Below are positions 13,024 through 28,174 of a DNA stretch of 64,000 bases, one piece after another (position 1 is the first letter of the stretch; each line of letters begins with the position of its first letter). The stretch is from assembly GCF_006546835.1 (NCBI RefSeq), contig NZ_VICB01000025.1:1-64000 (forward strand), in the 5' to 3' direction. Both the position numbers and the translations under genes were made by a program. Source of the DNA: Actinomyces johnsonii (GTDB lineage: Bacteria > Actinomycetota > Actinomycetes > Actinomycetales > Actinomycetaceae). Under the pieces are notes generated by a model. The model made no database searches. It had not been told where the DNA came from and saw nothing but the letters and a program-made list of their open reading frames with translations.

Positions 13024-14178
13024 TTACCCGGCAGCGGCTGAGGGCTGGGCCGGGGGCGCGGCGCCCCCGGACAGAAGCTGGCGGGCGCACAGCCCGGCGA
13101 TGCACTCCTCGGCCGGGTTGAGACCGAGCCGGTTGACGTCGATGTGCAGCAGATCCAGGGCCCGGCGTCCGTCGGTCCCCGCGCCCATGGCCCCGATGGC
13201 CCGCCCGGCGTCGTCGGCCAGCTCGCCGAGGGCCCCGGCCGCCTTGCTCCAGGACGGAATCTCGTCGAACTGGAACTCGATGACCTCCAGCAGCTGTTGA
13301 ACGATCGGCCCCAGGGCACTGCCGTCACGCAGATGCGCGGGCAGGCGAGAGCCCCACATCCGCAGGTGCGCGGACAACAGCTCGGCCTCGGGCAGCGGCG
13401 CGCTGCGGGCCGCCAGCGCCAGGAAGCGCGCCGCCAGGGCCGCCCGCGGCACCGGTCGGGGAATCTGCCAGATCTGGTGATCCAGGCACCACCGGCTGGA
13501 TAGGTAGAAGTGGCGTTCGGCCTCCTCGACCCCGGCCACGCCCCCGTACTTGTCGTATTCGGGGCCGTAGACGCCGAAGGCGATCCCGGGCCGGCTGGCG
13601 CCGATTCCCCCGGTCATCGGGTCGGAGACCAGGCGCTCGACCGTGCGTGCCTCGGCTCGCCGGGCGACGGCGCCCAGCTCGCGCATGCTCGCATAGGCGT
13701 CATCCAGGACGCCCTGAACGGCCTTGAGCCGCAGTCGGATGTGGTGCCCGCGCAGGTCGACGAAGCGCAGGAAGTGCGCTGAGCGAATGTCCCACTGTCC
13801 GCGGGCCCGAGCCAGCCACTGGGCGATCTCGGGCAGCAGGGCGTCGGTGTCGTCCCCGCCGGCGCAGTAGATTCGCGCGTACAGCCAGCCGACGTCCTCG
13901 ACCTGGTTGACCAGTGCCGATCCCCGCTGGCGCACCGAACTGTGCTGGGCGCGCAGGCTGCCGAAGTCGGCGGCCGCCATCTCCAGGGGCTGGATCCCCG
14001 GGATCGAGGCCCCAACCTGCGGAGATGCGTCTGCTTGGCCGCCCTGGACCGAGGGCTCGCCCGGCTCTCCCGCCCGCGAGCGCCCGCCGAGCCAGCGCAG
14101 GCGCCGGGAGCGGGTGAGTCGGCTGGGCTGGTTGCGCTGGTCGCGTCTGCTGGACTGGGCTTCGTCGCGCGTGCTCAT
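13024..14178 (-). CDS. SpaB_C / thiopeptide-type bacteriocin biosynthesis domain protein
   Basis: 384-aa protein of the thiopeptide-type biosynthesis domain family (the stand-alone C-terminal domain of LanB dehydratases). Diagnostic blocks are WLYARIYC, RSAHFLRFVDLRGHHIRLRLK, FGVYGPEYDKYGG and EEAERHFYLSSRWCL. In goadsporin- and thiopeptide-type systems such a protein either eliminates glutamate from glutamylated Ser/Thr to make dehydroalanine or forms the [4+2] pyridine. Only one copy is present here, so elimination is more likely. The N-terminal ~75 residues are Arg/Gly/Gln rich and atypical. It overlaps the LanB N-domain gene by ATGA, so the two are coupled; it is the last gene of the cluster. 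Confidence 0.8.
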   Translation of the reverse strand: MSTRDEAQSSRRDQRNQPSRLTRSRRLRWLGGRSRAGEPGEPSVQGGQADASPQVGASIPGIQPLEMAAADFGSLRAQHSSVRQRGSALVNQVEDVGWLYARIYCAGGDDTDALLPEIAQWLARARGQWDIRSAHFLRFVDLRGHHIRLRLKAVQGVLDDAYASMRELGAVARRAEARTVERLVSDPMTGGIGASRPGIAFGVYGPEYDKYGGVAGVEEAERHFYLSSRWCLDHQIWQIPRPVPRAALAARFLALAARSAPLPEAELLSAHLRMWGSRLPAHLRDGSALGPIVQQLLEVIEFQFDEIPSWSKAAGALGELADDAGRAIGAMGAGTDGRRALDLLHIDVNRLGLNPAEECIAGLCARQLLSGGAAPPAQPSAAAG

Positions 14179-16817
14179 GCCATTCCTCCCAGGTCCTTGG
14201 GCCACTGCAGCCCCACCAGGTACTCGGCCACGGTCGGCTCGCCGTCCTGCGTGAGTCCCAGGGCCTCGCCTCGGGCCGGAAGGGCCTCGACGAAGCTGAT
14301 GTGTGCGGCGTCGGGATCGATCCACCCTCGCAGCGCCAGCAGCGAGACCGGCGAGCTCAGGTCCACGTAGCGGGGCTTGTGCTGGTCGAAGGTGGCTCCC
14401 TGGGAGGGCATGTGCTGGTGGACGAAGACCTCCACCGGAATCCCCCACTGCTTGCGCAGGTCGTCCATGTGCAGCAGGGTCGTGGTCAGGTCGCGGTCCA
14501 TGAGCGGGGCGATCTGGGCGGCCGGGAAGGTCCAGGACTCGCGCCGTGTCACCAGGCGGCCGGCCACGGCCCGCTCGGAGTGCATGACCTCGTCGGGAAG
14601 AGGACCGTTCAGGTCACGACGCCGGCTGGTCCAGTGGTCCGCGAACGGGGGCAGCCGGGACCACGGATCGCTCAGCAGCACCAGCCAGGACAGGTAGCCG
14701 CCTAGGAGGTACTGGGGGGTCAGACCCAGGTAGGCCAGCCCCACGGGGCCGGCGTCGTCGGCCAGGAACAGGGTATTCGTGGCTGGGTCGTGGACGAGCC
14801 GCAGGGAGCTGAGGGGGACCATGTCCGGCGCGCCCGGCTCACCGGGTAGGCCCAGCGGCGGCAGAAGCCCGCAGGAGACGGCCTGGCCGGTGTTGCACTC
14901 GGTGCTGGCCTGGATCTCCAGGACCCGCTCGGTGCCCCAGGCGGTGCGGATCCGCGTGGCCAGGCGCTCCCGGAAGCTGGAGCCCAGGAGCCGGTGGAAG
15001 CGGGCCTGGAGCGAGCCGTTGGCGTTGGTGAAGGCGTTGACGACGGTCAGTCCTCCGCCGGCGGCATAGGTCCGGACGCTGGGGGCCACGGGCTGGAGGA
15101 AGGCACCCAGGTGCCTCGGGGAGCCGGAGAGCCCACCGGGCAGGGCGGCGCGCTCCGTATCGGGACCGGCGGCGTAGTCGAGCCCGGCGGCGCGCAGCAT
15201 CTCCTCGTCGCCGTCGGGGGCGTGGGCGAGGGTCATGAAGAAGGCCAGCGGGTCCTTGCACACCCCACCGCTTCCGAACAGTGAGACGAACCGGGTCACC
15301 ATGAGGTCGTAGATGTGGGAGCGGGCCACCCAGGGGTCGGCGAGCTCGCCGAGGACCTGCACGTCCTGGGCGAAGGGGGCGTCGTCGAGGGGATCAGTCC
15401 AGCTGCGGACGGCCTCGCGGTCCTCGTAGAGGAAGCCGCTGGGGCGCTCGCCGAGCTCGCCGTCGGGGAAGACGCGCTCGGCCAGCCGCACCGTGCGGTT
15501 GAGGAGCTCGGCCCGGGTGGGCCCGTCGGCGGCGCCAATGGCCTCGTCGAGCCGGGCCAACCAGGCCAGGTCCTCGCCCCACTGGCGCTGCTGGTCCGGT
15601 GAGAGCGTGGCGGCCAGCAGCGGGAAGGGGTTCTCCCCTCGGTACCAGGGCACCCGCGGCACGACGGCGCCCGAGGCCAGCAGCCGCTCCAGGCGCAGGC
15701 GGGGGTCGGCCCCGCCCACGCGCTCGCAGGCATCGCGCACACTGAGCACGGCGTGCATGCCGCCGCCGGTCAGGGCGTCGTGGGTCCCCTGGAGCCAGCG
15801 GGCGGGCTGGACGGTCTCCTGGCGGAAGACCATGCCGTTGCCGTACTCGTGCTCGCCGATGACGGTCAGCGTCTCCGCCTCCGGTTCGGCGGGCGGGTGC
15901 TGCCCGTATGCATTGGCCGCTCCCCCGCCGGAGCCGGCGCTGAAGGCCCGGCGCACGGGGGCGGGCTCGAGGTAGAGGGCGCCGTCAGACGCCAGATCCT
16001 GGGCGGTGGCGCTCAGAATGCGGTAGGCCAGGTGGGTCGCCACCATGCGGTGGCTGCGCCCGGCAGCGGGCTGGCCCGCCTCGTTGACGGTGGTCAGTCC
16101 CGAGAAGGGGCTGGTCTTGAGGGCGGCCCGGGTGGCCAGGGTGTAGAGAGTGCGCAAGACGCGGGGATCCTCGAGCCTACGACCGCGGGAGGCCAAGGTG
16201 GAGATGAGCGCAGGAGCGGCGATCGCCAGGGCCTCCTGGTAACCGGGCTCATCGAGACCGGCCGCCAGCAGCTCGCGGCTGCGATCGAGGTCGACGTCGA
16301 CGAGGACGGCCAGACGCCCACGGGTCTCCTCCTTGCGGGCCACCAGGGCATCCCAGCGCTCCAGCAGCGCGCGGAGCTCAGTGGGTAGGGCAGCCAGGAC
16401 CTCCTCGGACAGGCCGGTGGCCCGCCCCTGGAAGACTCGGCGCTTGGCGCGCAGGACCAGGCGGCGCTCGGTCTTGGCCAGGGTGGGGATGAGCTCGTAG
16501 AGCGGGTCGAGCAGCTGGTTCGCGGCGCCGTCGAGCACCTCGTCGAGCCGGCGCAGGTACTCCAGGTTACCGGTGACGGCAGCGGTGGTCTCGGGGACAG
16601 CCCGCACGGGGAGCCCGCCCAGGCGCACGAGGGTCGGCAGGGCCACGGCGGGCTGGGCCAAAGCCGGAGGTTCCGGCGCCGGTACCGGTACCGGAGCTGG
16701 TACGGCGGAAGACGGAGCGGATAGGACGGGCTCCCCGGGGGTCACGGCGGATGTGGAGTGCGGCTGTGGCTGTCGGGATGGGGAGGCACCGGTACGGGAA
16801 AGAACCGGCTGCGTCAT
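14175..16817 (-). CDS. LanB-type (tRNA-Glu dependent) lantibiotic dehydratase, N-terminal glutamylation part
   Basis: 880-aa protein of the Lant_dehydr_N type. After a ~65-residue Pro/Ala linker come blocks typical of LanB/TclK enzymes: LVLRAKRRVFQGR, the TSPFSGLTTV motif, HEYGNGMVF, and a C-terminal part with the HQH…KPRYVDLSSP region. These enzymes use glutamyl-tRNA to glutamylate Ser/Thr of the precursor before elimination by the partner protein. The frame is open another 260 codons upstream, but that is the shadow of the M50 protease gene; the ATG at 16817 overlaps the protease stop by ATGA. It lacks the elimination domain, which is encoded by the next gene. Confidence 0.85.
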   Translation of the reverse strand: MTQPVLSRTGASPSRQPQPHSTSAVTPGEPVLSAPSSAVPAPVPVPAPEPPALAQPAVALPTLVRLGGLPVRAVPETTAAVTGNLEYLRRLDEVLDGAANQLLDPLYELIPTLAKTERRLVLRAKRRVFQGRATGLSEEVLAALPTELRALLERWDALVARKEETRGRLAVLVDVDLDRSRELLAAGLDEPGYQEALAIAAPALISTLASRGRRLEDPRVLRTLYTLATRAALKTSPFSGLTTVNEAGQPAAGRSHRMVATHLAYRILSATAQDLASDGALYLEPAPVRRAFSAGSGGGAANAYGQHPPAEPEAETLTVIGEHEYGNGMVFRQETVQPARWLQGTHDALTGGGMHAVLSVRDACERVGGADPRLRLERLLASGAVVPRVPWYRGENPFPLLAATLSPDQQRQWGEDLAWLARLDEAIGAADGPTRAELLNRTVRLAERVFPDGELGERPSGFLYEDREAVRSWTDPLDDAPFAQDVQVLGELADPWVARSHIYDLMVTRFVSLFGSGGVCKDPLAFFMTLAHAPDGDEEMLRAAGLDYAAGPDTERAALPGGLSGSPRHLGAFLQPVAPSVRTYAAGGGLTVVNAFTNANGSLQARFHRLLGSSFRERLATRIRTAWGTERVLEIQASTECNTGQAVSCGLLPPLGLPGEPGAPDMVPLSSLRLVHDPATNTLFLADDAGPVGLAYLGLTPQYLLGGYLSWLVLLSDPWSRLPPFADHWTSRRRDLNGPLPDEVMHSERAVAGRLVTRRESWTFPAAQIAPLMDRDLTTTLLHMDDLRKQWGIPVEVFVHQHMPSQGATFDQHKPRYVDLSSPVSLLALRGWIDPDAAHISFVEALPARGEALGLTQDGEPTVAEYLVGLQWPKDLGGMA

Positions 16818-18031
16818 AGGAGGAAACCTTTCACGAGGACGTACAGCCAGTAGCCTATCCATACAACGCTCATCGTGAAGGCCAGGAGACCGAGAAGACT
16901 GCACAGAAGCCCGTAGATGAAATAGCCCCAGCGCACCGCGGGCCGCATCCCGGCCAGGGCCGGCGGCAGGGGCTGGCGCGTGAGAGTGCAGCGCAGAACG
17001 AACATGGAACGCCCGCGCAGGTTGACCGAACCAGTGGCCGCCTCGACCGCGGCGACCCCGTCGGACTGGGTGAGGGGGTTGAGGTTGGTGATGAGCATCG
17101 TGAGCTGGAAGGCACACAGGGTCAGGGCCACCTGGCGCACCATCCCCGTGGAGGCCCAGGCGACGGCTGCCTCCAGACCGCAGACGACGCCGTCGGAGAA
17201 GATGCCGGCCAGGGCCAGCATGGTCAGCCCGCGCCGGGATCGCACCCGGTAGGAGTCGGTGCGGTCGACGTAAGCAATCGGGATGACCCAGAACATGAGC
17301 GCCACCCCGAGCCCGCGAATCGGCGTGCCCAGGTAGCCGGCGACGATGGCGTGCCAGGACTCGTGCAGCAGGATGCTCACCAGCTGGATCGCCACCGCCG
17401 TGATGAAGACGAAGACACTCGGGCGGGGGCCCCCGGCCAGGGAGCTCAGCGCCATGGCTCCGGCCGTGTAGCCGCAGGCGGCCAGGGCCAGGAAGACCCA
17501 GCTGAGCGCGCGGGCCGGCAGGTGCTGAAGCAGGGTGACAACGGGGGCGACGATCCGGTGGTACTTGCGGGCAATGATGATGCGGGGCAGCCACCAGCCC
17601 CCGCTGCGGCGGGGCTTTTCAACCTTGAGGTGGCGGGCCTGACGGGGCTGGGCGGTGTGCCGCCCACGGGTGCGCCTGGTGCGCGTCGGGGCCGCTGAGA
17701 CGGCGGGAGCGGGCTCACTGCCCGCCAGGAGGCTTTTGTCGCGCAGGTTGTCGACCAGGCTCGTGATGCGTTTGGCGCCTGCTTCGTCGATGTCCTGGGG
17801 CAGCTCCTCGATGATAGTCGGCAGGGAGCGCACCCCGTCGAACTGGTTGACGATGAAGGCGGCGGCCGCACCGAGCCGGTGGTACTTGCCCGAGTCGGAG
17901 TCGAACAGCATCGGCTGGTTGTCCATCCCGACGATGAGACTCACGCCGCGGCGCAGGCGCGGGATCGGATTCGTCGGGGTGCTCCCAGGGCTCATCGGCG
18001 GGCTCGTCGCCGTACTCATCACCGTGCTCAT
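16814..18031 (-). CDS. PqqD-M50 fusion: membrane zinc metalloprotease of the RiPP cluster
   Basis: 405-aa protein. Residues ~25-105 resemble a PqqD/RRE-like leader-binding domain (LFDSDSGKYHRLGAAAAFIVNQFDG…). The rest has several transmembrane helices with the zinc motif HESWH (His223, Glu224, His227) and a downstream NLNPLTQSDG motif, equivalent to the NxxPxxxxDG metal-binding loop of site-2-type M50 proteases. It is therefore an intramembrane or membrane-bound metalloprotease guided by the leader peptide. The likely job is cleaving the precursor leader at the membrane; a role in export or immunity is also possible. It overlaps the dehydratase gene by 4 bp and lies 96 bp after the precursor gene. 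Confidence 0.8.
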   Translation of the reverse strand: MSTVMSTATSPPMSPGSTPTNPIPRLRRGVSLIVGMDNQPMLFDSDSGKYHRLGAAAAFIVNQFDGVRSLPTIIEELPQDIDEAGAKRITSLVDNLRDKSLLAGSEPAPAVSAAPTRTRRTRGRHTAQPRQARHLKVEKPRRSGGWWLPRIIIARKYHRIVAPVVTLLQHLPARALSWVFLALAACGYTAGAMALSSLAGGPRPSVFVFITAVAIQLVSILLHESWHAIVAGYLGTPIRGLGVALMFWVIPIAYVDRTDSYRVRSRRGLTMLALAGIFSDGVVCGLEAAVAWASTGMVRQVALTLCAFQLTMLITNLNPLTQSDGVAAVEAATGSVNLRGRSMFVLRCTLTRQPLPPALAGMRPAVRWGYFIYGLLCSLLGLLAFTMSVVWIGYWLYVLVKGFLL

Positions 18032-18127
18032 CGTGGGCTCATGGCTCCCTCAGGTCGGTTCGCGATGTACCGGGTACCGCTGTGGCGGGCAGGAGACCCC
18101 GGTCTCCTGCCCGCCACTGTGGGGTCG

Positions 18128-18331
18128 TCAGCAGGACGTCGTCGACGCGCTGGCGGCGCAGGCCGGGCACGAGGCCGAGGCCGCGCTGGCCGGGCACGAG
18201 GCCGAGGCGGCGCAGGCCGGGCAGGACGCGCTGGCGTGGCTGAAGGCGCAACCCAGGGCGTTGCCCTCGGGGAGCTCCTCGACGCCGAAGTCACTGTCGG
18301 CGAGGGTGAGATCGATCGCGCTGTTCGTCAT
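18128..18331 (-). CDS. RiPP precursor peptide with repeated Ser/Cys core
   Basis: 67-aa peptide with a very strong Shine-Dalgarno (AAGGAGGTG, 8 nt before ATG). The leader (1-27) is acidic (ADSDFGVEELPEGNALG), as in thiopeptide and goadsporin precursors. The core (about 28-67) has 7 Cys and 13 Ser/Thr and contains a 9-residue unit SASCPACAA three times (34-42, 43-51 with Cys49 replaced by Ser, 52-60), then SASTTSC. Cys residues should become thiazol(in)es through the YcaO enzyme and Ser residues dehydroalanines through the LanB pair. Cleavage after LG27 is a guess. The gene lies between the dehydrogenase and protease genes. Confidence 0.85.
   Translation of the reverse strand: MTNSAIDLTLADSDFGVEELPEGNALGCAFSHASASCPACAASASCPASAASASCPACAASASTTSC
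18152..18232 (-). repeat. Three tandem 27-bp repeats inside the precursor core
   Basis: The coding DNA for residues 34-60 consists of three 27-bp units (18206-18232, 18179-18205, 18152-18178) with few differences. They share the plus-strand stretch GGCCGGGCACGAGGCCGA or close variants. This points to repeat expansion of the core by slippage or unequal crossover. Confidence 0.8.
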
Positions 18332-18373
18332 ATGCTGTTCACCTCCTTCTCTCAGATGTCATGTGGGCAGGAG

Positions 18374-18439
18374 CGGGGCCCGATCGGGCCCCGGGGGTCC
18401 GGTCTGCCGGGACCGGGCCCCAAACCCCGCGAACGGGGT
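18374..18439. terminator. Hairpin cluster upstream of the precursor gene
   Basis: A perfect 20-bp palindrome (18374-18393) is followed by ACCCCG-CGAA-CGGGGT (18424-18439). On the minus strand they lie after the dehydrogenase stop (18527) and before the precursor start (18331). They could be an attenuating terminator or RNA-processing barrier that lets the precursor be made at a different level from the enzymes. A TACATA box on the minus strand at 18464-18469 could be a -10 for a separate precursor promoter. Confidence 0.5.
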
Positions 18440-18526
18440 GGTCTGTGGAACTCTCTGACGCGGTATGTAGTTCTGGGTCGGTCTCGCCACCGGCGGGCCG
18501 TCGGCGCACGCAGGTGATGATCGGGG

Positions 18527-19267
18527 CTAACCGGCCGTCGGACTCGTCTCGGGCTCGGCCACTGGACTGGCCACGGTGACGGCGAACATCTGGTGGCGGC
18601 TGACGCCGTCGGAGTCCAGCAGATGGCGCACCGCTGAGGTGGCGAAACCGGCGAAGACAGTCCCCACCAGTCCTCGGGCGACGGCGCGCAGGTGGACCGA
18701 GTAGATGAGGGCCGCACTGCGGCTCATGGTGAAGCGGTAGCCGACCGCTCCGCCCCAGGTGTCCGCCTCATCGAGGTTGGCGGCCACCGAGACGATGGCG
18801 CCGGCGCGGGCGAATTCCTTCTGCACCGTCATGCCCTCAATCGCCTCGGCCTCCGGCAGGGGGCGGATGAGGTCGACGCCGTCGAGCCGGACCCGGTAGA
18901 TGCCGGGTTCTGCTCCGCGCGGGCGCAGAAGGAGGACGAAGGGCTCCAGGGGGCAGGCCGCCGCGTCCTCGTCCCAGGTGCGCGCATCGTCGGCCAGGGC
19001 GTCACGGACCATGGCCAGGAGGGGTTCGGCCTCCAGCGGCTCGGTGCCGTAGCTGGTGGACGACGAGCGGCGCTCGAAGGTCTGATGCAGGTCGTGCGGG
19101 TAAGCCGTCTGGGGGCCGGGCACGAGCGCGTCCGGTTCCCGGCAGGCCAGCGGCGGGCGCGGACGGCGCGCGGCCAGGCCGTCGGAGGTCGGCTCGCCCG
19201 GGAGGCTTCCCGATCCGGATGAGAAGCCGTTGACGAGCTCGCGCAGCGTTTCGAAGTCAGTGCGCAC
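18527..19267 (-). CDS. SagB-type nitroreductase-like dehydrogenase (azoline oxidase)
   Basis: 246-aa protein of the FMN-dependent nitroreductase fold. The N-terminal FERRSSSTSYGTEPL motif matches the FxxRRSxRxF/Y start of SagB/McbC dehydrogenases. The middle LEPFVLLLRPRGAEPGIYRV and C-terminal LRAVARGLVGTVFAGFATSAVRHLL segments fit the fold. It should oxidise azolines made by the YcaO enzyme to aromatic azoles. It overlaps the upstream fusion gene by 11 bp and is coupled to it. Confidence 0.75.
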   Translation of the reverse strand: MRTDFETLRELVNGFSSGSGSLPGEPTSDGLAARRPRPPLACREPDALVPGPQTAYPHDLHQTFERRSSSTSYGTEPLEAEPLLAMVRDALADDARTWDEDAAACPLEPFVLLLRPRGAEPGIYRVRLDGVDLIRPLPEAEAIEGMTVQKEFARAGAIVSVAANLDEADTWGGAVGYRFTMSRSAALIYSVHLRAVARGLVGTVFAGFATSAVRHLLDSDGVSRHQMFAVTVASPVAEPETSPTAG

Positions 19268-21029
19268 GGCTGCCTCCCAGGTCGACGACGATGCAGGCCG
19301 GCTCGCGGGCCGGGTCGGTGCCCAGCGCCCGGGCGATCCGCTGCTCGTCCCAACGGGCCCGAGCCCGCAGGGGCACTCCCAGGGCGTCGGCGACGAGCCG
19401 GATCACCTCGAAGGAGCAGCCGCAGTCCTGGACCGCGATTCGCAGGGCGAAGGAGAAGTACTTGCGAGCCACCTTGTCCACGTTGCCGGTCAGGACGATT
19501 CTCACGCCGACGCCGTCGGGCACGACATCCGTCTCCGAGACCGAGGGGGCGGGCCCGATGAGGGCCAGGGCGTGGTCGCGCTCGATGTAGACGTAGGTTC
19601 CCGGGGCCAGCTGCTCCCCACCGACTTCACCCGCCTCCCCGCTCTCGGGGACGAGGACGTAGGCGGTCACCGAGCCGATATTGCCGCCGGCGGCCGTCCA
19701 GCGGCGCAGCTTGGCGCTCAGCGGGGTCTGTGCGGCGTCGGCCGCGCCCGGATCCGTGGACCCGGTGCCGAGGGGCTCGCGCACGCCGACCGACAGCGCC
19801 AGAATCGTGGCGAGTTCACTCAGGGTGGGGCGGACGGCGGCATCGGCATCGCCGCCTCCGATCGGATGCACGACGGGCCAGGGCTGATCCAGGCGCCCCA
19901 GGTCGGCGGGCGGCAACTGTGTGCGCGGGCAGACCGGCCAGTCGCGGAACTCGCGCTGGAGGCGCAGGTTGGAGGGCTTGTAGTGCTGTTGGTGGCCCTT
20001 GGAGTCCACGAAGGCCGCGGGCGGGATCACCACGGACTGCTCGTAGCGGGCGCCCACGGGGGCCGAGGGCGCCACCGGCACCAGGGTCTCGCCCTGCCCC
20101 GCCACGGAGCAGACCGGGCAGCCGGGGCGCGAGACGACCGGTCGATCGGAGTAGGTGAAGGTGGCCAGGTCGGTGCGCCGGGCGTCCCCGGGCAGGTGGG
20201 TGACGGTGGCGCGGGCGATGAGCGCGGCCACGGCCCGGGCGGCCAGGCCAATGACGATATCGCGGCGGGCGGCGTCGGGGCGGGGGCCGAGCTCGGGCTC
20301 GTCGGCACTCGCGCAGGCAAGACAGGGAGAGAAGCTCTCGTCGACGTAGGGGCCGATCGTGACCGCCTCATGTTCGGCGCGCACCCGCAGCAGCGGAATG
20401 CCGTCCTGGCGGCAGCGGCGCGCCACCTCCTCGGAGCGGTCGGAGAAGTCGATCGTCTCGATGAGGACGACGAGCGTGTCCCCCTGGCGGGGTGCGCCGT
20501 CGAGTCGCACATCGGGCAGCGTGGGCTCCAGGGCGGCGACCATCTCGCCGGCCAGCTCGGCGTCCCCGACGACGGCAACCCGGGCGGCTGCCAGGCGACG
20601 GGCGGCGTCCTGCCAGGAGTCGTTGACGCCGGTGGAGTCGCCCAGGCGCGAGAGGAGCCTGGCCAGCTCGGGGGCCGGCTCACCGGGAGCGGGCTCGGTG
20701 TCGCCCTCCTCGACGATGCCGCCGGTCCACAGCAGGGAGACGGCCTCGAAAGCGGCCTGGGGGCCGATACCGGTGGCCTCGCCGATCTCATCGAGGGTGC
20801 GGGTTCCGTCGCAGGCCTCGAGCAGGGGGCCCATGTGCTCGCGGGCGAAGGCTCCGCCCAGGACCTGGCTCTTACGGGCGCCGTCGACGATCCAGCCGCC
20901 CTCGTCGGGCCGGGCGCGCAGGCCGAGCCGGACCACGGGCTTGCGGGGGATGCGGAACTGCAGGTCGCGGCGGGCGGCGCGGCCGACGTCGCCGGCGCGC
21001 ATGACAGAGCCTGTGGTGTCCCCGGCCAT
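19257..21029 (-). CDS. TOMM leader-binding E1-like protein fused to a nitroreductase-like domain
   Basis: 590-aa protein. Residues ~20-105 form an RRE-type winged helix (LGLRARPDEGGWIVDG…LLEACDGTRTLDEIGEATG). The centre is E1/ThiF-like with two CxxC pairs (PCLACAS and GCPVCS) expected to bind structural zinc. The C-terminal ~200 residues (LSELATILALSVGVREP…, PGTYVYIERDHALALIG…, VRIVLTGNVDKVARKYFSFALRIAVQDCG) look like a second SagB-type nitroreductase domain, perhaps degenerate. It would capture the precursor leader and deliver the core to YcaO and the oxidase. The start at 21029 lies one base after the previous stop. Confidence 0.75.
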   Translation of the reverse strand: MAGDTTGSVMRAGDVGRAARRDLQFRIPRKPVVRLGLRARPDEGGWIVDGARKSQVLGGAFAREHMGPLLEACDGTRTLDEIGEATGIGPQAAFEAVSLLWTGGIVEEGDTEPAPGEPAPELARLLSRLGDSTGVNDSWQDAARRLAAARVAVVGDAELAGEMVAALEPTLPDVRLDGAPRQGDTLVVLIETIDFSDRSEEVARRCRQDGIPLLRVRAEHEAVTIGPYVDESFSPCLACASADEPELGPRPDAARRDIVIGLAARAVAALIARATVTHLPGDARRTDLATFTYSDRPVVSRPGCPVCSVAGQGETLVPVAPSAPVGARYEQSVVIPPAAFVDSKGHQQHYKPSNLRLQREFRDWPVCPRTQLPPADLGRLDQPWPVVHPIGGGDADAAVRPTLSELATILALSVGVREPLGTGSTDPGAADAAQTPLSAKLRRWTAAGGNIGSVTAYVLVPESGEAGEVGGEQLAPGTYVYIERDHALALIGPAPSVSETDVVPDGVGVRIVLTGNVDKVARKYFSFALRIAVQDCGCSFEVIRLVADALGVPLRARARWDEQRIARALGTDPAREPACIVVDLGGSRAH

Positions 21030-21030
21030 C

Positions 21031-21822
21031 TCAGGCCACCTCCCCTCGGCGTTCGGGCAGGAGGGCGGCGAGCGCGGGCAGACCATCGCGCCGGCCCTCG
21101 TAGCGGCCCGAGCAGATCTCGCAGCGGTCCACGGCCACGGTCCGCGAACAGGAGGTGAGGCCCGAGATGAGGTCGATGGTCCACACCCGGCCGCCGATCT
21201 CCGGGAGATCCCCGGTATCCGTGGTGCCGTCCTTGACGTCCTCGACGTCGTCGGCGCCGAGCGGGGTCTCCTCCCGGCGGTCGAGGGTCTGGAGGGCCAG
21301 CGAGATGAGCCCGGCGCCCAGGAGCACGTGGTGGTAGGCGTATCCCTGCTCCAGCGGGCCGAGCTCGGCACTCACCTCCGGGGGTAGCGGGCGGTAGCCG
21401 TGCTGGCGTCGGCGCCGGTCGTAGCAGCGGTAGCAGGCGCTGCGGCCGGGGACCACGAGCGGTCCGCAGCGCAGCTCAGTGGGGAAGAGTTCCAGGCCGA
21501 GGGAGGGCATGCCCCTGGTGAAGGACAGGGCGTCGAGGTCCTCGCGCAGGCCGGTCTGGTCGGGGTCGGCCACGAGGACGGCGCGGTCGGCGTAGGGGAC
21601 GAAGGTGCTGACCAGCCCGTGGTCGACCGGCACGACGACGTCGTCCGGCCCGGCGAGCCGCCGCACGACGGCTCGTGCGAACCCACCCTGGGGCAGGTAG
21701 GCCGTCACCGGCCCCGAGGGGGCCTGCGGTGCCGGCCGCGCGGCCGGTGGGGGCGTCGTCGTACTCATGGCGGGTCGGGGCTCCTGAGAGTTGGACGGAG
21801 GCGTCGGGGACGCTGTTGACAT
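21031..21822 (-). CDS. E1-like (ocin-ThiF type) cyclodehydratase partner protein
   Basis: 263-aa protein with two CxxC pairs (ACYRCYDRRRRQ and CEICSGRY) separated by GYAYHHVLLGAGLISLALQTL, the layout of the bacteriocin cyclodehydratase / ThiF-like partner family. It lacks an obvious RRE, which the neighbouring fusion protein supplies. It probably partners with YcaO to activate it. The start is uncertain: 21822 gives the longest form, while an ATG at 21768 has AGGAG 12 nt upstream and skips a Pro/Ser-rich stretch. Confidence 0.75.
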   Translation of the reverse strand: MSTASPTPPSNSQEPRPAMSTTTPPPAARPAPQAPSGPVTAYLPQGGFARAVVRRLAGPDDVVVPVDHGLVSTFVPYADRAVLVADPDQTGLREDLDALSFTRGMPSLGLELFPTELRCGPLVVPGRSACYRCYDRRRRQHGYRPLPPEVSAELGPLEQGYAYHHVLLGAGLISLALQTLDRREETPLGADDVEDVKDGTTDTGDLPEIGGRVWTIDLISGLTSCSRTVAVDRCEICSGRYEGRRDGLPALAALLPERRGEVA

Positions 21823-21834
21823 CGGGGACAGGAC

Positions 21835-23190
21835 TCAGGCGAAGGGTTGGCGGACGGGATTGATCCCCGCCTCGTCGTGGACGGTCAGGCCCATGGCCCG
21901 GGGGGCCTCGTAGAGGCGAGGCGTGGCCAGGTAGCGGGCGTGGTGGCTAAAGGACAGGGGCATGGCCTCGGGGATGAGGGCCTTGATGACGTGCATGCCG
22001 ACCTGGCGGGCCTCATCAGTGGTGATGTCGACGACGATCGCCTCGGCGCCGGCCCTCTCCAGGTTGGCGACGACCTGTTCGAGCGGGTCGGCACCAGTCG
22101 AGGGCGCCCCCAGGGTGCCGATCTCGTCCAGGGCGTGGACGGGGCGCTCGCCCTCGAGGAGGAAGTCGAAGACGTGGCGCATGGACAGGTCGGCGTCGGC
22201 CAGGGCGCCGCCGACCACGGTGAGGTCCTGGCCCTTGATCTCTTGAGCGCGCGGGCCGCGGGCGTGGCTGCGCAGGGCGATGCGCAGGGAGGCGAGCTCG
22301 CGGTGGATCTTGGCCAGTGCCCGCTGCGGGTCGACGTCGCAGGTGGCGGCAACCACCTGGGCCAGCTCGGGGTCGACCTGGGAGGTCTGGACGGCGTAGA
22401 GGGTGGGGACGCCGTAGTCAGTGGTGGCGTCGAACAGATGGGTCTCCAGCTCGGTGGAGGTGCCGACCCGGTGGTACTCGGCGGCCGTCTCGCCCAGCGC
22501 GTCGGGGTTGACCGCGACCGCCGGCAGGCGCAGGCGCTGCAACCAGGTCAGGGCGATGGAGTCGCGCTCAATAACCTCGAGCAGGCCGCCCAGCACCGCC
22601 TCGCGCAGGTCGGAGTGCGCGGCGGTACCGGTGGAGATGGGGTTGACGAACTGCTCGGAGGGGGTGCGTACCGGGAAGTTGAGATAAGTCAGGACGGCTG
22701 GGACGAAGACCTCCCGGCCGCGGGTCAGGGACCAGCCGCGCACCCAGCGCATCGGGACGCGGGGGTCCGAAGCGATGAGCCCGCAGTCGGGGTCCGCCAG
22801 CTCCGTGGCCGAGCACGCCGGCCAGCGTTCCGGTCCGATCGCGGCTTCGCCGAGACCGGCGGGGGTGTCCCACACCAGCTCCTCCTCCGTCCATGAGCAG
22901 CTGGAGTAGCGTTCCATCGTCTCCACGATCGCGATGTGTCTGGCGCGATCGGCATCGATGGCCCCGCCGGCCCCGTCGAAGTTGCCCGCCTCGGCACGGT
23001 GATTCCAGCTGCGCTGTGACCTCAGCGCCTCAGATGGATCACCCAGAAGACCGGTCCAGATCGCGAAGACCGGCTCTCCGGCCGCCTGGGGCAGCTCGGT
23101 GGAACGGGAAACCAGGCCGAAGGGCGACTCAAGAGACGCAGCGCGAGCCAGTGATGGCGCCACGCCCTCAATGAGCGCAGAGCGATACAC
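21835..23190 (-). CDS. YcaO-domain azoline-forming cyclodehydratase
   Basis: 451-aa YcaO enzyme. The ATP-binding signature STGTAAHSDLREAVLGGLLEVIERDS matches the SxAxHxxxxxAxxxxxxEVxERD pattern. The N-terminal block IAIVETMERYSSCSW and the C-terminal tail INPVRQPFA are typical of TOMM/thiopeptide YcaO proteins. It phosphorylates amide bonds so Cys (or Ser/Thr) side chains cyclise to azolines. It is the first gene of the minus-strand operon; GAAGGAGG lies upstream. Next gene follows after 12 bp. Confidence 0.9.
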   Translation of the reverse strand: MYRSALIEGVAPSLARAASLESPFGLVSRSTELPQAAGEPVFAIWTGLLGDPSEALRSQRSWNHRAEAGNFDGAGGAIDADRARHIAIVETMERYSSCSWTEEELVWDTPAGLGEAAIGPERWPACSATELADPDCGLIASDPRVPMRWVRGWSLTRGREVFVPAVLTYLNFPVRTPSEQFVNPISTGTAAHSDLREAVLGGLLEVIERDSIALTWLQRLRLPAVAVNPDALGETAAEYHRVGTSTELETHLFDATTDYGVPTLYAVQTSQVDPELAQVVAATCDVDPQRALAKIHRELASLRIALRSHARGPRAQEIKGQDLTVVGGALADADLSMRHVFDFLLEGERPVHALDEIGTLGAPSTGADPLEQVVANLERAGAEAIVVDITTDEARQVGMHVIKALIPEAMPLSFSHHARYLATPRLYEAPRAMGLTVHDEAGINPVRQPFA

Positions 23191-23456: not shown

Positions 23457-24215
23457 ATGTCTTCCCAGATTTCTCCCGAAAGAATCGGCCTCGCCCTGGT
23501 CGACGACGATGCGATGGCCTTGGCCCATCTCGAATCCTATTTTTCTGACGTTGAGGACCTCACCGTCCTCACAGCGACGCGCTCGCCCCACGCCGTCCTG
23601 AGGTTTCTTCAGTCGCGTCAGGTCGACGTCCTCATCACCGATGTTCATATGGAGAGCATGGACGGCGTGGAAATGACCAGGGAGGTGATCCGCGTCTCGC
23701 CGTCGACCAGAGTCATTCTGCTGACCACCGTCGATACCGACGAGGACCTCCTTCAGGGGTTGGGGGCGGGAGCCAGTGGCTTCCTGCTCAAGAGCGCCCC
23801 GGCCGAGGAGATCACCGCAGCAGTCCGCACAGTCCATTCCGGGGCGAAGGTCGTGGCCCCGACGCCGACGACGCGCCTCATCGACTACGCGTTGGCTTCC
23901 GTGCGCGGCGCGGATGGGAGCGTCCATCTGTCGGATCGGGAGCGCGACGTGCTCCACCTCCTGTGCGAAGGGGCCTCGAACCGCAAGATCGCCTCCCTGC
24001 TGGCCATTGCCGAGGCAACAGTCAAGTCCCATATCACCGGCTTGTTCCACAAGACGGGCACGACCTCGCGTCTGGAGATCGTGGTGTGGGCCTTCAAGCA
24101 CGGCTACGCCTCCAACAGCCCCTTCACGATCCCGGTCACCAGTGCCCCCAGCAGCCCGACCCCGGGCTCGAGCCCCAGTCCCTCAGAGGCCCGCAGCATC
24201 GGCCGTGAACACTGA
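23457..24215 (+). CDS. NarL/LuxR-family response regulator, likely cluster regulator
   Basis: 252-aa protein. The receiver domain (about 12-130) has acidic pocket LVDDD, phospho-acceptor Asp62 in LITDVHMESMDG, and the Lys of FLLKSAPAEEI. The LuxR-type helix-turn-helix (about 160-225) has LSDRERDVLHLLCEGASNRKIASLL and ATVKSHITGLFHKTGTTSRLE. It has a Ser/Pro-rich C-terminal tail. AAGGAGA at 23447 fixes the start. It is divergent from the YcaO-led operon with a shared 266-bp intergenic region, so it probably controls that operon. No histidine kinase is adjacent, so its signal is unknown. Confidence 0.85.
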   Translation: MSSQISPERIGLALVDDDAMALAHLESYFSDVEDLTVLTATRSPHAVLRFLQSRQVDVLITDVHMESMDGVEMTREVIRVSPSTRVILLTTVDTDEDLLQGLGAGASGFLLKSAPAEEITAAVRTVHSGAKVVAPTPTTRLIDYALASVRGADGSVHLSDRERDVLHLLCEGASNRKIASLLAIAEATVKSHITGLFHKTGTTSRLEIVVWAFKHGYASNSPFTIPVTSAPSSPTPGSSPSPSEARSIGREH

Positions 24216-25981: not shown

Positions 25982-26173
25982 GCCGACCGACCGCCATTCA
26001 GTCACCGGCGCGCCCCGTAGCTTTCATGCCGTCTCAGTCGGCGGACATCCCGCGTGCTCGACATACGATCTCCCGATCGTGTCGCCGCGAGGGACCGGCC
26101 GGCCGAACGGGTTTGTCGCGCCCCGCGGGACCGGTACCGGATCATGCCCTGAAGATCGCATTGGAGAATGCTC

Positions 26174-28174
26174 ATGCCGATGTCCCGTCCCCGACGGCTC
26201 CTCGGGGCGGCAGCGCTCGCCGTCGCCCTGACAGCCCCAGCCTTCACCACGGCACAGGCCGTGCCCCGCAGCGCCGAGAGTCCGGCCGCCGGCCCGGTGA
26301 CCACAGCCATTGAGGCGCCCGACGCCCAGCTGGCCGCCGGCGAGCACAACGGTATCCGCACCTGGACCCATGACAAGGCCAGCAAGGCGACCGAAGGCGC
26401 CGTCGCCCCTGAGGAAGTGCGCCAGTCCCCGTTCTACTCCGTGCGCGTGGCCCCGGTCTCCGCACCCGATCAGACGCAGGACTCTTTCACCTACCTGAGC
26501 GTTCCACGCAACGGCAAGGATAAGGAGGGCTACACGGCCGAGGACGGCGCCGACTACGCCGCCACGACGAAGGCGACCATGTCCTGGTCGACCTTCGAGT
26601 ACAGCCCGCAGGTCAAGGAGGTCTTCGTCTACGTGACGCTCCTGAACGGGGCCTCAGTCAAGGACCCGAGCGACATCACGATCCGCCCCACCTCCACAGA
26701 GGACAAGAACATCAAGGTCGAGGCCATTGAGAACGAAGGCCGCACCGCGAAGATCCGGGTCCCCTACTCTCAGAACGGCTACCGGCTCTCGGTGGAGTTC
26801 CCCTCGCAGACGGTCAGCACCTATGCCGACAAGGACGGCGTTCTCGGCGAGGAGTCGGACTCGAGGACCTTCCTGGAGTCCGAGCCCCGCAACGCGATGC
26901 TCCTGTTCGCTCAGCCCCAGGCCCCTGAGGGCACGGTTCCTGATGCTGGCGCCCCCGAGGTCCTGAGGGTGACGCCGGGCGACATCAGCGCACTCGACGA
27001 GACTGCCCGTGCGGACTCCTCGAAGAACACCCTCTACTTCGGGCCGGGCGTCTACTCCATGGGCTCAACGCACCTGCCCCAGCTGCCCGGCAACATCAGT
27101 CGGGTCTATCTGGCGCCGGGCGCCTTCGTCAAGGGCGGCTTCCACTTCGCCGACAACGGGGCCGCAGAGTACCGGGTGACGGGGTACGGCGTCCTGTCCG
27201 GAGAGGAGTACGTCTACGAGGCGGACACGCTCGACGGTTTTAAGTCCTTCCAGGACTCGACTCACTCCAGGAACGGCGACTGCCACGCGGACTGCGCCAA
27301 GCCGCTGCGTTTCAGCTCCTCCAACGCAGCGCAGCACCTCACCCTCCAAGGAGTAACCATGAAGGAGCCCCCGTACCACTCCTTCGTGATCTACGGCAAC
27401 GAGAACACCTTCCGCATGAACGTGAACAACTACCAGCAGGTGGGCGCCTGGTATTGGCAGACCGATGGCCTGGAGATGTACTCCGACCCCGACCAGGGCA
27501 GGTCCACCCTGGAGAACTCCTTCTTCCACGCCAACGACGATGTCTTCAAGCTCTACCACTCCAAGGTGGATCTCCGTAATAACGTCGTCTGGAAGGGCCA
27601 GAATGGCCCGGTGTTCCAGTGGGGGTGGACTCCAAGGAACATCGACGACGTCACCACAACCGACACGGCGATCATTCACAGCCGGATGTTCTCCCGCGAC
27701 GTCGTCCACAACTCCTGTGTCTTCAACTCGGCCCGGCACTTGGATGCCCCGGAAGCGACGAACACAGCCAATCCGTCCACAACGGTCAGCAACATGACCT
27801 TCACGAACACCCGAGTCGAAGGCAGCGTCAACTGCGCGATCCGCATGTACGGACTGTCCAACACCGAGAACATCACGATCGACGGGCTAGTCATTGACGG
27901 CTGGAACGGGCAGAGCACCGACCTCGCCCAGAGCCGGATCCAGATGCTGACCAACAAGAACGGTCAGAAGGTGCGTTTCGGCTCGGCCGACAGCACCGTC
28001 AAGGGCCTGAACATTCGCGATTACAAGGTGGGACAAGGGGGTGGCGCCACCGGAGCCAAGCCGGCTACCTACACCACCATCACCCTGGACCAGAACAACT
28101 GGCAATCAGACAAGCCCGGGCGGCTCAACTTCGACGCCGAGCTCTGGGGGCGCTGGACAGCAACCGGCCAGTGA
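26174..28174 (+). CDS. Secreted GH49-type dextranase
   Basis: 666-aa protein with a Sec signal peptide (RPRRLLGAAALAVALTAPAFTTAQA). It is similar in layout to GH49 dextranases/isopullulanases: an N-terminal beta-sandwich domain, then a right-handed beta-helix containing YFGPGVYSMGS, the GAWYWQTDGLEMYSD and FFHANDDVFKLYHS blocks. The Asp residues there (QTDG, NDDV) match the catalytic aspartates of the family. It should cut alpha-1,6-glucan (dextran) outside the cell, relevant in dental plaque. The start at 26174 suits GGAGA at 26163-26167; 26168 is also possible. It sits between copZ and copA, an unexpected place. Confidence 0.8.
   Translation: MPMSRPRRLLGAAALAVALTAPAFTTAQAVPRSAESPAAGPVTTAIEAPDAQLAAGEHNGIRTWTHDKASKATEGAVAPEEVRQSPFYSVRVAPVSAPDQTQDSFTYLSVPRNGKDKEGYTAEDGADYAATTKATMSWSTFEYSPQVKEVFVYVTLLNGASVKDPSDITIRPTSTEDKNIKVEAIENEGRTAKIRVPYSQNGYRLSVEFPSQTVSTYADKDGVLGEESDSRTFLESEPRNAMLLFAQPQAPEGTVPDAGAPEVLRVTPGDISALDETARADSSKNTLYFGPGVYSMGSTHLPQLPGNISRVYLAPGAFVKGGFHFADNGAAEYRVTGYGVLSGEEYVYEADTLDGFKSFQDSTHSRNGDCHADCAKPLRFSSSNAAQHLTLQGVTMKEPPYHSFVIYGNENTFRMNVNNYQQVGAWYWQTDGLEMYSDPDQGRSTLENSFFHANDDVFKLYHSKVDLRNNVVWKGQNGPVFQWGWTPRNIDDVTTTDTAIIHSRMFSRDVVHNSCVFNSARHLDAPEATNTANPSTTVSNMTFTNTRVEGSVNCAIRMYGLSNTENITIDGLVIDGWNGQSTDLAQSRIQMLTNKNGQKVRFGSADSTVKGLNIRDYKVGQGGGATGAKPATYTTITLDQNNWQSDKPGRLNFDAELWGRWTATGQ

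What the first reader, a model, noticed from the sequence alone, without database searches (positions are those of the whole stretch)
13024..23190. Complete azole-plus-dehydroalanine RiPP cluster in an Actinomyces-type genome
Eight contiguous minus-strand genes supply YcaO, two E1-like proteins, dehydrogenase(s), a split LanB pair, an M50 protease and a precursor. Known family roles predict thiazoles from Cys and dehydroalanines from Ser. There is only one SpaB_C-type protein, so either elimination or pyridine formation is covered, not both. A linear goadsporin-like product is therefore more likely than a classical macrocyclic thiopeptide. I do not recall a characterised product with this gene set.
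Basis: partly seen in the sequence, partly recalled or inferred. Interest (0 to 1): 0.85.

Follow-up and report, generated by a model that had tools for sequence, protein, structure and literature searches.

The report
Azole-and-dehydroalanine peptide gene cluster in Actinomyces
An Actinomyces genome carries a compact set of genes that most likely makes a linear peptide studded with thiazole rings and dehydroalanines; the same set in the same order turns up in distant bacteria with changing peptide cores, and its product has not been matched to a known compound.

Summary
The cluster is real. Eight minus-strand genes (13024-23190) encode a YcaO, an E1-like protein, an E1-like/SagB fusion, a second nitroreductase-like protein, a 67-aa precursor, a PqqD domain fused to an HExxH membrane protease, a LanB glutamylation protein and a LanB elimination-type protein. 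The LanB-N protein's best solved relative is goadsporin's GodF (3.4e-29; profile 5.3e-70). Family searches of the genome find one YcaO, one SpaB_C-type protein and no LanC, so a linear azole-plus-dehydroalanine peptide is the best reading; chemistry is untested. New here: seven enzymes keep one order in 29 of 30 cassettes read (the 30th is cut by its contig end), in Actinomyces and three other actinobacterial families; an Anoxybacillus plasmid is annotated with the same order. Ser stands before Cys in 61 of 61 precursors counted, the Ser-before-azole site that goadsporin enzymes dehydrate. The window's branch has one precursor with 9-residue repeats ASASCPA(S/C)A in varying number; other branches have three to five precursors built of (S/T)(S/T/C)X triplets. 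Goadsporin's fused cyclodehydratase, transporter-peptidase and acetyltransferase were not found in the cassette or ten neighbouring ORFs. The nearest possible characterised relatives, spongiicolazolicins, could not be compared: paper not held.

The parts
21835..23190 (-). YcaO cyclodehydratase (SagD family, discrete, not fused to E1)
   Evidence: PF02624 2.4e-62, TIGR03604 420.6 bits; aligns with LynD residues 411-775, to its C-terminus; only YcaO match of the genome
21031..21822 (-). E1-like protein, 263 aa, probable partner or leader-binding protein of the cyclodehydratase
   Evidence: TIGR03882 at 2.3e-6, below cut-off; conserved in the cassette
19257..21029 (-). E1-like domain fused to a SagB-family dehydrogenase domain, 590 aa
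   Evidence: TIGR03882 1.4e-11, TIGR03605 2.9e-13 (the latter below cut-off); profile matches CyaGox, McbC and the E1 part of LynD/MusD; Lys523-Tyr524 invariant in 12 of 12 aligned
18527..19267 (-). second nitroreductase-like protein, 246 aa, without the Lys-Tyr pair; possible partner subunit of the dehydrogenase
   Evidence: PF00881 0.017, below cut-off; family profile matches nitroreductase-fold chains 3eo7 (2.4e-9) and BmdC; alignment
18128..18331 (-). precursor peptide, 67 aa: leader MTNSAIDLTLADSDFGVEELPEGNALG (leader end assumed) and a core of 9-residue repeats with four Ser-Cys pairs
   Evidence: NF033482 1.1e-10; 27-base tandem repeat at 18143-18236; leader codons under purifying selection; GAAGGAGGTGAACAGCAT before the ATG
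16814..18031 (-). PqqD-like (RRE-type) domain fused to an M50-type membrane metalloprotease with HExxH
   Evidence: PF05402 1.5e-5; NF041824 1e-23 and PF02163 0.062, both below cut-off; relatives in L068 and L039 pass the M50 cut-off; H223, E224, H227, D324 invariant in 14 of 14
14175..16817 (-). LanB N-type glutamylation protein, 880 aa, GodF-like
   Evidence: phmmer to 9jhq GodF 3.4e-29; profile 5.3e-70 to GodF and 2.7e-28 to 6ec7
13024..14178 (-). SpaB_C-type protein, 384 aa, predicted glutamate eliminase
23457..24215 (+). divergently transcribed NarL/LuxR response regulator, probable neighbour regulator
   Evidence: PF00072 9.3e-22, PF00196 1.8e-15; next to the cassette in 18 of 19 other loci of this branch, the 19th being cut by its contig end

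Best explanation
The cassette makes a linear RiPP that carries both azoles and dehydroalanines. Inferred order: E1-like/RRE domains bind the leader (..DSDFGVEELPEGNALG); YcaO with its E1-like partner cyclises Cys (and perhaps some Ser/Thr) to azolines; the SagB domain of the fusion oxidises them to azoles; the GodF-like protein then glutamylates, from Glu-tRNA, the Ser directly before an azole; the SpaB_C protein eliminates glutamate to give Dha, so every A-S-C-P unit becomes Ala-Dha-thiazole-Pro; finally the PqqD-fused membrane protease removes the leader and may also carry the product through the membrane. In the window's branch the product is a chain of 9-residue repeats whose number evolves; in other branches several precursors built of (S/T)(S/T/C)X triplets would give Dha-azole-X chains. 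Shown: gene content, order, conservation, motif, codon selection. Inferred: every chemical step and the function, most simply a bacteriocin or signal.
For: GodF is the best solved relative of the LanB-N protein. One YcaO, one SpaB_C and no LANC_like match in the genome. SpaB_C profile matches elimination domains only. NisB R784 and R786 (their importance recalled) align with R148 and R150, invariant in 16 of 16; an H..NR motif of MibB aligns weakly with invariant H345 and N349-R350. [AGS]-S-C-P in 20 of 20 precursors of the Actinomyces repeat type and 38 of 41 others; Ser directly before Cys in 61 of 61. In goadsporin, Dha forms at Ser preceding an azole and only after azole formation (PMC5303826, passages). 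In the 41 other cores S/T/C runs of exactly two: 199 against 79.5 +/- 7.9 in shuffles, commonest spacing 3; Dha-azole-X triplets are reported for nostatin A and called very similar in spongiicolazolicins and goadsporin (PMC11583998, passages). Seven enzymes in one order in 29 of 30 cassettes.
Against: No product, mass or expression datum. NisB R826 (recalled) falls on Lys210 here, though Lys also stands there in 5 of 7 other azole-cluster SpaB_C proteins looked at. Folds of [4+2] enzymes score nearly as well. No exporter, acetyltransferase or immunity gene was recognised in the cassette. Two of three Anoxybacillus precursors and the Paracoccus one lack S-C-P, and a further candidate in L027 reads S-A-C-P and was left out of the count. 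The triplet pattern is not shared by the window's own branch: there single S/T/C are in excess (142 against 92.0 +/- 8.3) and pairs less so (73 against 50.4 +/- 6.5), so the transfer of the Dha-azole-X idea to this window rests on the Ser-Cys pairs alone. The leader matches the thiocillin-family model, which fits a thiopeptide origin too. The SpaB_C tree did not resolve deep forks.
Confidence: 0.7

Rival explanations
1. A thiopeptide-like (pyritide) product: the one SpaB_C protein is the [4+2] pyridine synthase, or does both elimination and cyclisation, and the product is macrocyclic.
Against: Profile matches only elimination domains up to E = 10; a glutamylation protein without an eliminase would leave glutamyl esters; one TIGR03891 match in 19 of 23 same-genus genomes with the LanB-N gene (G565 has two cassettes; G020, G028 and G035 have a further locus each); closest LanB-N is GodF.
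Confidence: 0.12
3. Spongiicolazolicin-type peptides already represent this family; the window is a divergent member of a characterised class. This is compatible with the best explanation and bears on novelty.
Against: Neither the spongiicolazolicin sequence nor its gene cluster could be read (not held); length and pattern are a lead, not a test; the cut site is a guess; the window's own repeat core differs from the triplet cores.
Confidence: 0.35

Closest known systems
Goadsporin (god cluster, Streptomyces sp. TP-A0584)
   Same: YcaO route to azoles, flavin dehydrogenase, split LanB (GodF/GodG); LanB-N is nearest to GodF; Ser before a heterocyclisable residue.
   Different: Cyclodehydratase discrete here, described as fused in goadsporin clusters (PMC4603692); PqqD-M50 protease instead of the ABC transporter-peptidase GodB; no acetyltransferase GodH found; two nitroreductase-like genes; repeat or triplet cores; only two SRP54-domain places in the genome.
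Spongiicolazolicins A and B (Streptomyces sp. CWH03)
   Same: Reported as 28-29-residue linear azole peptides with a Dha-azole-X pattern like the triplet cores of related cassettes.
   Different: Gene cluster and sequence not seen; relation untested.
Thiopeptides (thiomuracin, thiocillin and others)
   Same: YcaO, E1-like, dehydrogenase, split LanB; thiocillin-like leader.
   Different: No second SpaB_C ([4+2]) protein found; PqqD-M50 protease; Ser-Cys-Pro repeats.
Coryneazolisins (Cox et al. 2015, PMC4603692)
   Same: TOMM clusters with LanB-like dehydratases and no [4+2] protein, product unknown.
   Different: Two YcaO proteins, one fused; core with ten C/S/T, then Ile, then 5-7 more (section 26).
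Dehydrazoles (carnazolamide, PMC10676384)
   Same: Dehydration only of Ser preceding an azole.
   Different: LanM-type (DUF4135) dehydratase, nitrile-hydratase-like leader, radical SAM enzyme.

Membership tests
Goadsporin-type LAP | GodF-like glutamylation protein | tested here: met
Goadsporin-type LAP | separate SpaB_C-type protein in the place of GodG | tested here: met
   a separate SpaB_C-type protein is present; GodG itself was not available for comparison and elimination is not shown
Goadsporin-type LAP | fused E1-YcaO cyclodehydratase (GodD) | tested here: not met
   YcaO of 451 aa without a recognised E1 part; E1-like matches on two other genes
Goadsporin-type LAP | ABC transporter-peptidase (GodB) and acetyltransferase (GodH) in the cluster | tested here: not met
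   no such Pfam match among the eight proteins or ten neighbouring ORFs scanned; the rest of the window was not scanned
Goadsporin-type LAP | extra SRP54-type immunity gene (GodI, recalled) | tested here: not met
   two SRP54-domain places only in the genome, as expected for ffh and ftsY
Linear azol(in)e-containing peptide (LAP/TOMM) | YcaO plus E1-like partner plus Cys/Ser/Thr-rich core | tested here: met
Linear azol(in)e-containing peptide (LAP/TOMM) | azoles in an isolated linear product | not testable with these tools
   needs mass spectrometry
Thiopeptide | second SpaB_C-like [4+2] pyridine synthase | tested here: inconclusive
   one PF14028/TIGR03891 protein in the genome; sensitivity of these models for TbtD-type enzymes not checked
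Thiopeptide | thiocillin-like leader | tested here: met
   NF033482 1.1e-10, residues 7-49
Class I lanthipeptide | LanC cyclase | tested here: not met
   no PF05147 match in the whole genome
Dehydrazole | LanM-type DUF4135 dehydratase | tested here: not met
   no such Pfam match in the eight proteins at E 0.1
Spongiicolazolicin family | same gene set and precursor type | not testable with these tools
   paper not held

The most novel reading that the evidence does not exclude
The cassette defines its own, cross-phylum RiPP family: split E1/SagB machinery, GodF-like dehydratase and an RRE-fused intramembrane protease that both cleaves and exports. In Actinomyces it has evolved into a repeat-based chain, (Ala-Dha-thiazole-Pro...)n, whose length changes by gain and loss of 27-base units between species, while the enzymes stay fixed.
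Probability: 0.3. Interest if true: 0.65.

Novelty: new variant of a known kind. Interest (0 to 1): 0.52.

Why it matters
Few RiPP classes combine azoles and dehydroalanines, and how two enzyme systems share one Ser/Thr/Cys-rich core is described as not yet known (PMC10676384). Here nature supplies dozens of cores for one fixed enzyme set, including a repeat series that differs by whole 9-residue units, so the Ser-before-azole rule can be tested directly. Actinomyces is abundant in gingival communities, has few characterised peptides, and isolates inhibit other bacteria by products not yet identified (PMC8549736, passages).

Tried and rejected
Chance ORFs: rejected (homologues, synteny, codon-position pattern). 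Goadsporin-type immunity by an extra SRP54: not found. Plasmid relatives of P0008: none at E 0.01; of P0007 at E 0.001: one Anoxybacillus plasmid. Of nine loci fetched as hoped-for thiopeptide comparators I listed the ORFs of three; two of them seem, by ORF length and the place of the TIGR03891 match, to hold full-length LanB; the other six were not examined. A candidate [4+2] gene in L045 matched ABC permease models instead. Promoter and terminator scan around the precursor: nothing.

Rows dropped before the precursor counts: I chose precursors by hand; alternative starts were removed, and at least four candidates were left out: a 35-aa one in L041, a short GTG-start one in L042, an S-A-C-P form in L027, and a fourth precursor-like stretch (with S-C-P) inside a longer ORF of L028. 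The filters required a Shine-Dalgarno-like stretch, and one search also 8 or more S/T/C in the last 25 residues. Cores of related genomes are not independent, so the shuffle contrast overstates significance. One SpaB_C row, L030, was left out of alignment A3 because the stretch I gave held a stop.

Ten paper searches and the passages read gave no characterised product of this gene set; the library lacks most subscription papers, and most listed papers were seen as listings only.

Full report
Observation. In transcription order: YcaO (451 aa), E1-like (263 aa), E1-like/SagB fusion (590 aa), nitroreductase-like (246 aa), precursor (67 aa), PqqD-M50 protease (405 aa), LanB-N (880 aa), SpaB_C (384 aa). 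The LanB-N protein escapes Pfam and NCBIfam but is clearly a relative of GodF (PDB 9jhq, 3.4e-29; family profile 5.3e-70 along nearly the whole chain, then TbtB 6ec7 at 2.7e-28; that 9jhq is GodF and 6ec7 TbtB is recalled, the records say 'Goadsporin biosynthetic protein' and 'Lantibiotic dehydratase domain protein').

The dehydrogenase. The SagB half of the fusion matches CyaGox and McbC and keeps Lys523-Tyr524 in 12 of 12 aligned relatives; that this pair is the catalytic one of McbC is recalled. The separate nitroreductase-like protein lacks it and may be a partner subunit. Oxidation of azolines to azoles is therefore expected, not shown.

Genome context. The genome gives one PF14028 match, one TIGR03891 match, one YcaO, no LANC_like match, and two SRP54-domain places. 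In the 37 same-genus genomes (own included) 19 have the LanB-N gene; over all genomes of that call, 20 of 59. In a class-wide draw 30 of 394 genomes have any match to the LanB-N profile, but only 8 (own included) have matches stronger than 1e-100. In a family-wide draw 24 of 200 match. The protease profile reaches 1e-20 in 2 of 296 genomes drawn from the phylum, own included. So the cassette is common in this genus and rare outside it.

Conservation of the cassette. I read 30 distinct cassettes: window; L017-L028; L030-L036; L039-L044; L048-L050; L058 (L029 repeats L022 and is not counted). In 29 of 30 all seven enzymes are present in one order and orientation; L021 is cut by its contig end, with five genes (the first partial) left in order. 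Outside the genus identity to the window is about 28-55%, depending on the protein. Of 20 loci fetched, ten were this cassette and ten were not. An Anoxybacillus amylolyticus plasmid is annotated with the same order plus an ABC transporter and a CAAX protease, with IS66 and IS1380 elements upstream; a Paracoccus aminophilus plasmid has a rearranged version; two Streptomyces plasmids hold partial versions in which no LanB gene is listed (the gene tables of that collection are incomplete). So it is a cross-phylum and at times plasmid-borne cassette. Within the main Actinomyces branch it sits at one chromosomal place, near purB in 18 of 19 other loci and next to the divergent response regulator in 18 of 19, which speaks for long vertical inheritance there.

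Precursors. Most leaders share a DL..(E)ELPEG/Q-like stretch before the core. In the main Actinomyces branch (20 loci) I found one precursor each, with core units ASASCPA(S/C)A in different number (58- and 67-aa forms among close relatives), matching a 27-base tandem repeat in the window's DNA. Cys and Ser replace each other at the same repeat positions, as expected if both can be modified (seen by eye; inference). In other branches (Actinomyces L026, L027, L049; L028; L039-L044; L068) three to five precursors were counted per cluster, and S/T/C come in pairs often spaced by three: 199 runs of exactly two against 79.5 +/- 7.9 in shuffled cores, 103 spacings of three (41 hand-chosen precursors, many related to one another). 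The main branch does not share this: 142 single S/T/C against 92.0 +/- 8.3 and 73 pairs against 50.4 +/- 6.5. One genome, G565, carries both kinds of cassette (L048, L049). Ser stands directly before Cys in 61 of 61; [AGS]-S-C-P in 58 of 61. Candidates left out of these counts are listed under Tried and rejected.

Mechanism. Goadsporin enzymes put Dha at Ser directly before an azole, after azole formation, and azole formation depends on the residue before the S/T/C (PMC5303826: part 1 of 7 and passages read). Ser-Cys is such a site, so I predict Ala-Dha-thiazole-Pro at each unit and Dha-azole-X chains from the triplet cores. The same triplet is reported for nostatin A and described as very similar in phazolicin, spongiicolazolicins and goadsporin (PMC11583998, passages). 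The protease keeps HExxH and a distal Asp in 14 of 14; the epipeptide protease EpeP is thought to cleave and export (PMC10885120, passages), which may explain why no exporter was recognised in the Actinomyces cassette. That is inference.

Known or new. Papers seen: PMC5303826 (part 1 of 7 and passages), PMC4603692 (section 26 and passages), PMC10676384 (parts 1-3 of 7 and passages), PMC8549736, PMC6989792, PMC8838263, PMC10885120, PMC11583998, PMC7268733, PMC7470986, PMC7616364, PMC13289728 (passages). None of what I saw describes this gene set; the one Actinomyces cluster named in PMC4603692 is filed with the thermoacidophisins and was not compared. Two surveys report thiopeptide-type or unknown RiPP clusters in Actinomyces, products not described in the passages seen.

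Verdict. A real, well conserved RiPP cassette, best read as making a linear azole-plus-Dha peptide; it works like goadsporin biosynthesis but is not a goadsporin cluster. New variant of a known kind.

Noticed in passing
L068 1-31260 (NZ_CP015439.1, Anoxybacillus amylolyticus plasmid): Full cassette in Bacillota with an ABC transporter and CAAX protease; IS66 and IS1380 elements upstream and comX-type quorum genes on both sides.
   Followed up: partly
L071 3550-16653 (NC_022049.1, Paracoccus aminophilus pAMI4): Rearranged version in Pseudomonadota: SpaB_C first, then YcaO, leader-binding protein, a 780-aa nitroreductase-family protein, site-2 protease and a large hypothetical in the LanB place; a precursor-like ORF lies about 4 kb upstream.
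   Followed up: partly
L069 11980-19444 and L070 11837-17347 (Streptomyces plasmids): Partial cassettes with the YcaO annotated in two pieces, a GNAT acetyltransferase and no LanB gene listed.
   Followed up: no
L022 7363-10001 (Actinomyces oris S64C): LanB-N homology lies in two different frames, so the gene looks interrupted there, or the assembly has an error.
   Followed up: no
L048 and L049 (genome G565): One Actinomyces-genus genome carries both the repeat-core and the triplet-core cassette about 100 kb apart.
   Followed up: partly
NZ_CP116225.1 173057-173977 (Actinomyces oris record of 415 kb): A different YcaO gene (31.5% identity to the window's) on a record held in the plasmid collection.
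   Followed up: no
window 26168-28174 (+): Family 49 glycoside hydrolase (dextranase or isopullulanase type) about 2 kb beyond the response regulator; of interest for plaque glucan.
   Followed up: no
L045 4661-13732: A separate goadsporin-like cluster in another actinobacterial family: fused E1-YcaO, SagB-like match, split LanB and a DrrA-type ABC transporter with permease.
   Followed up: partly
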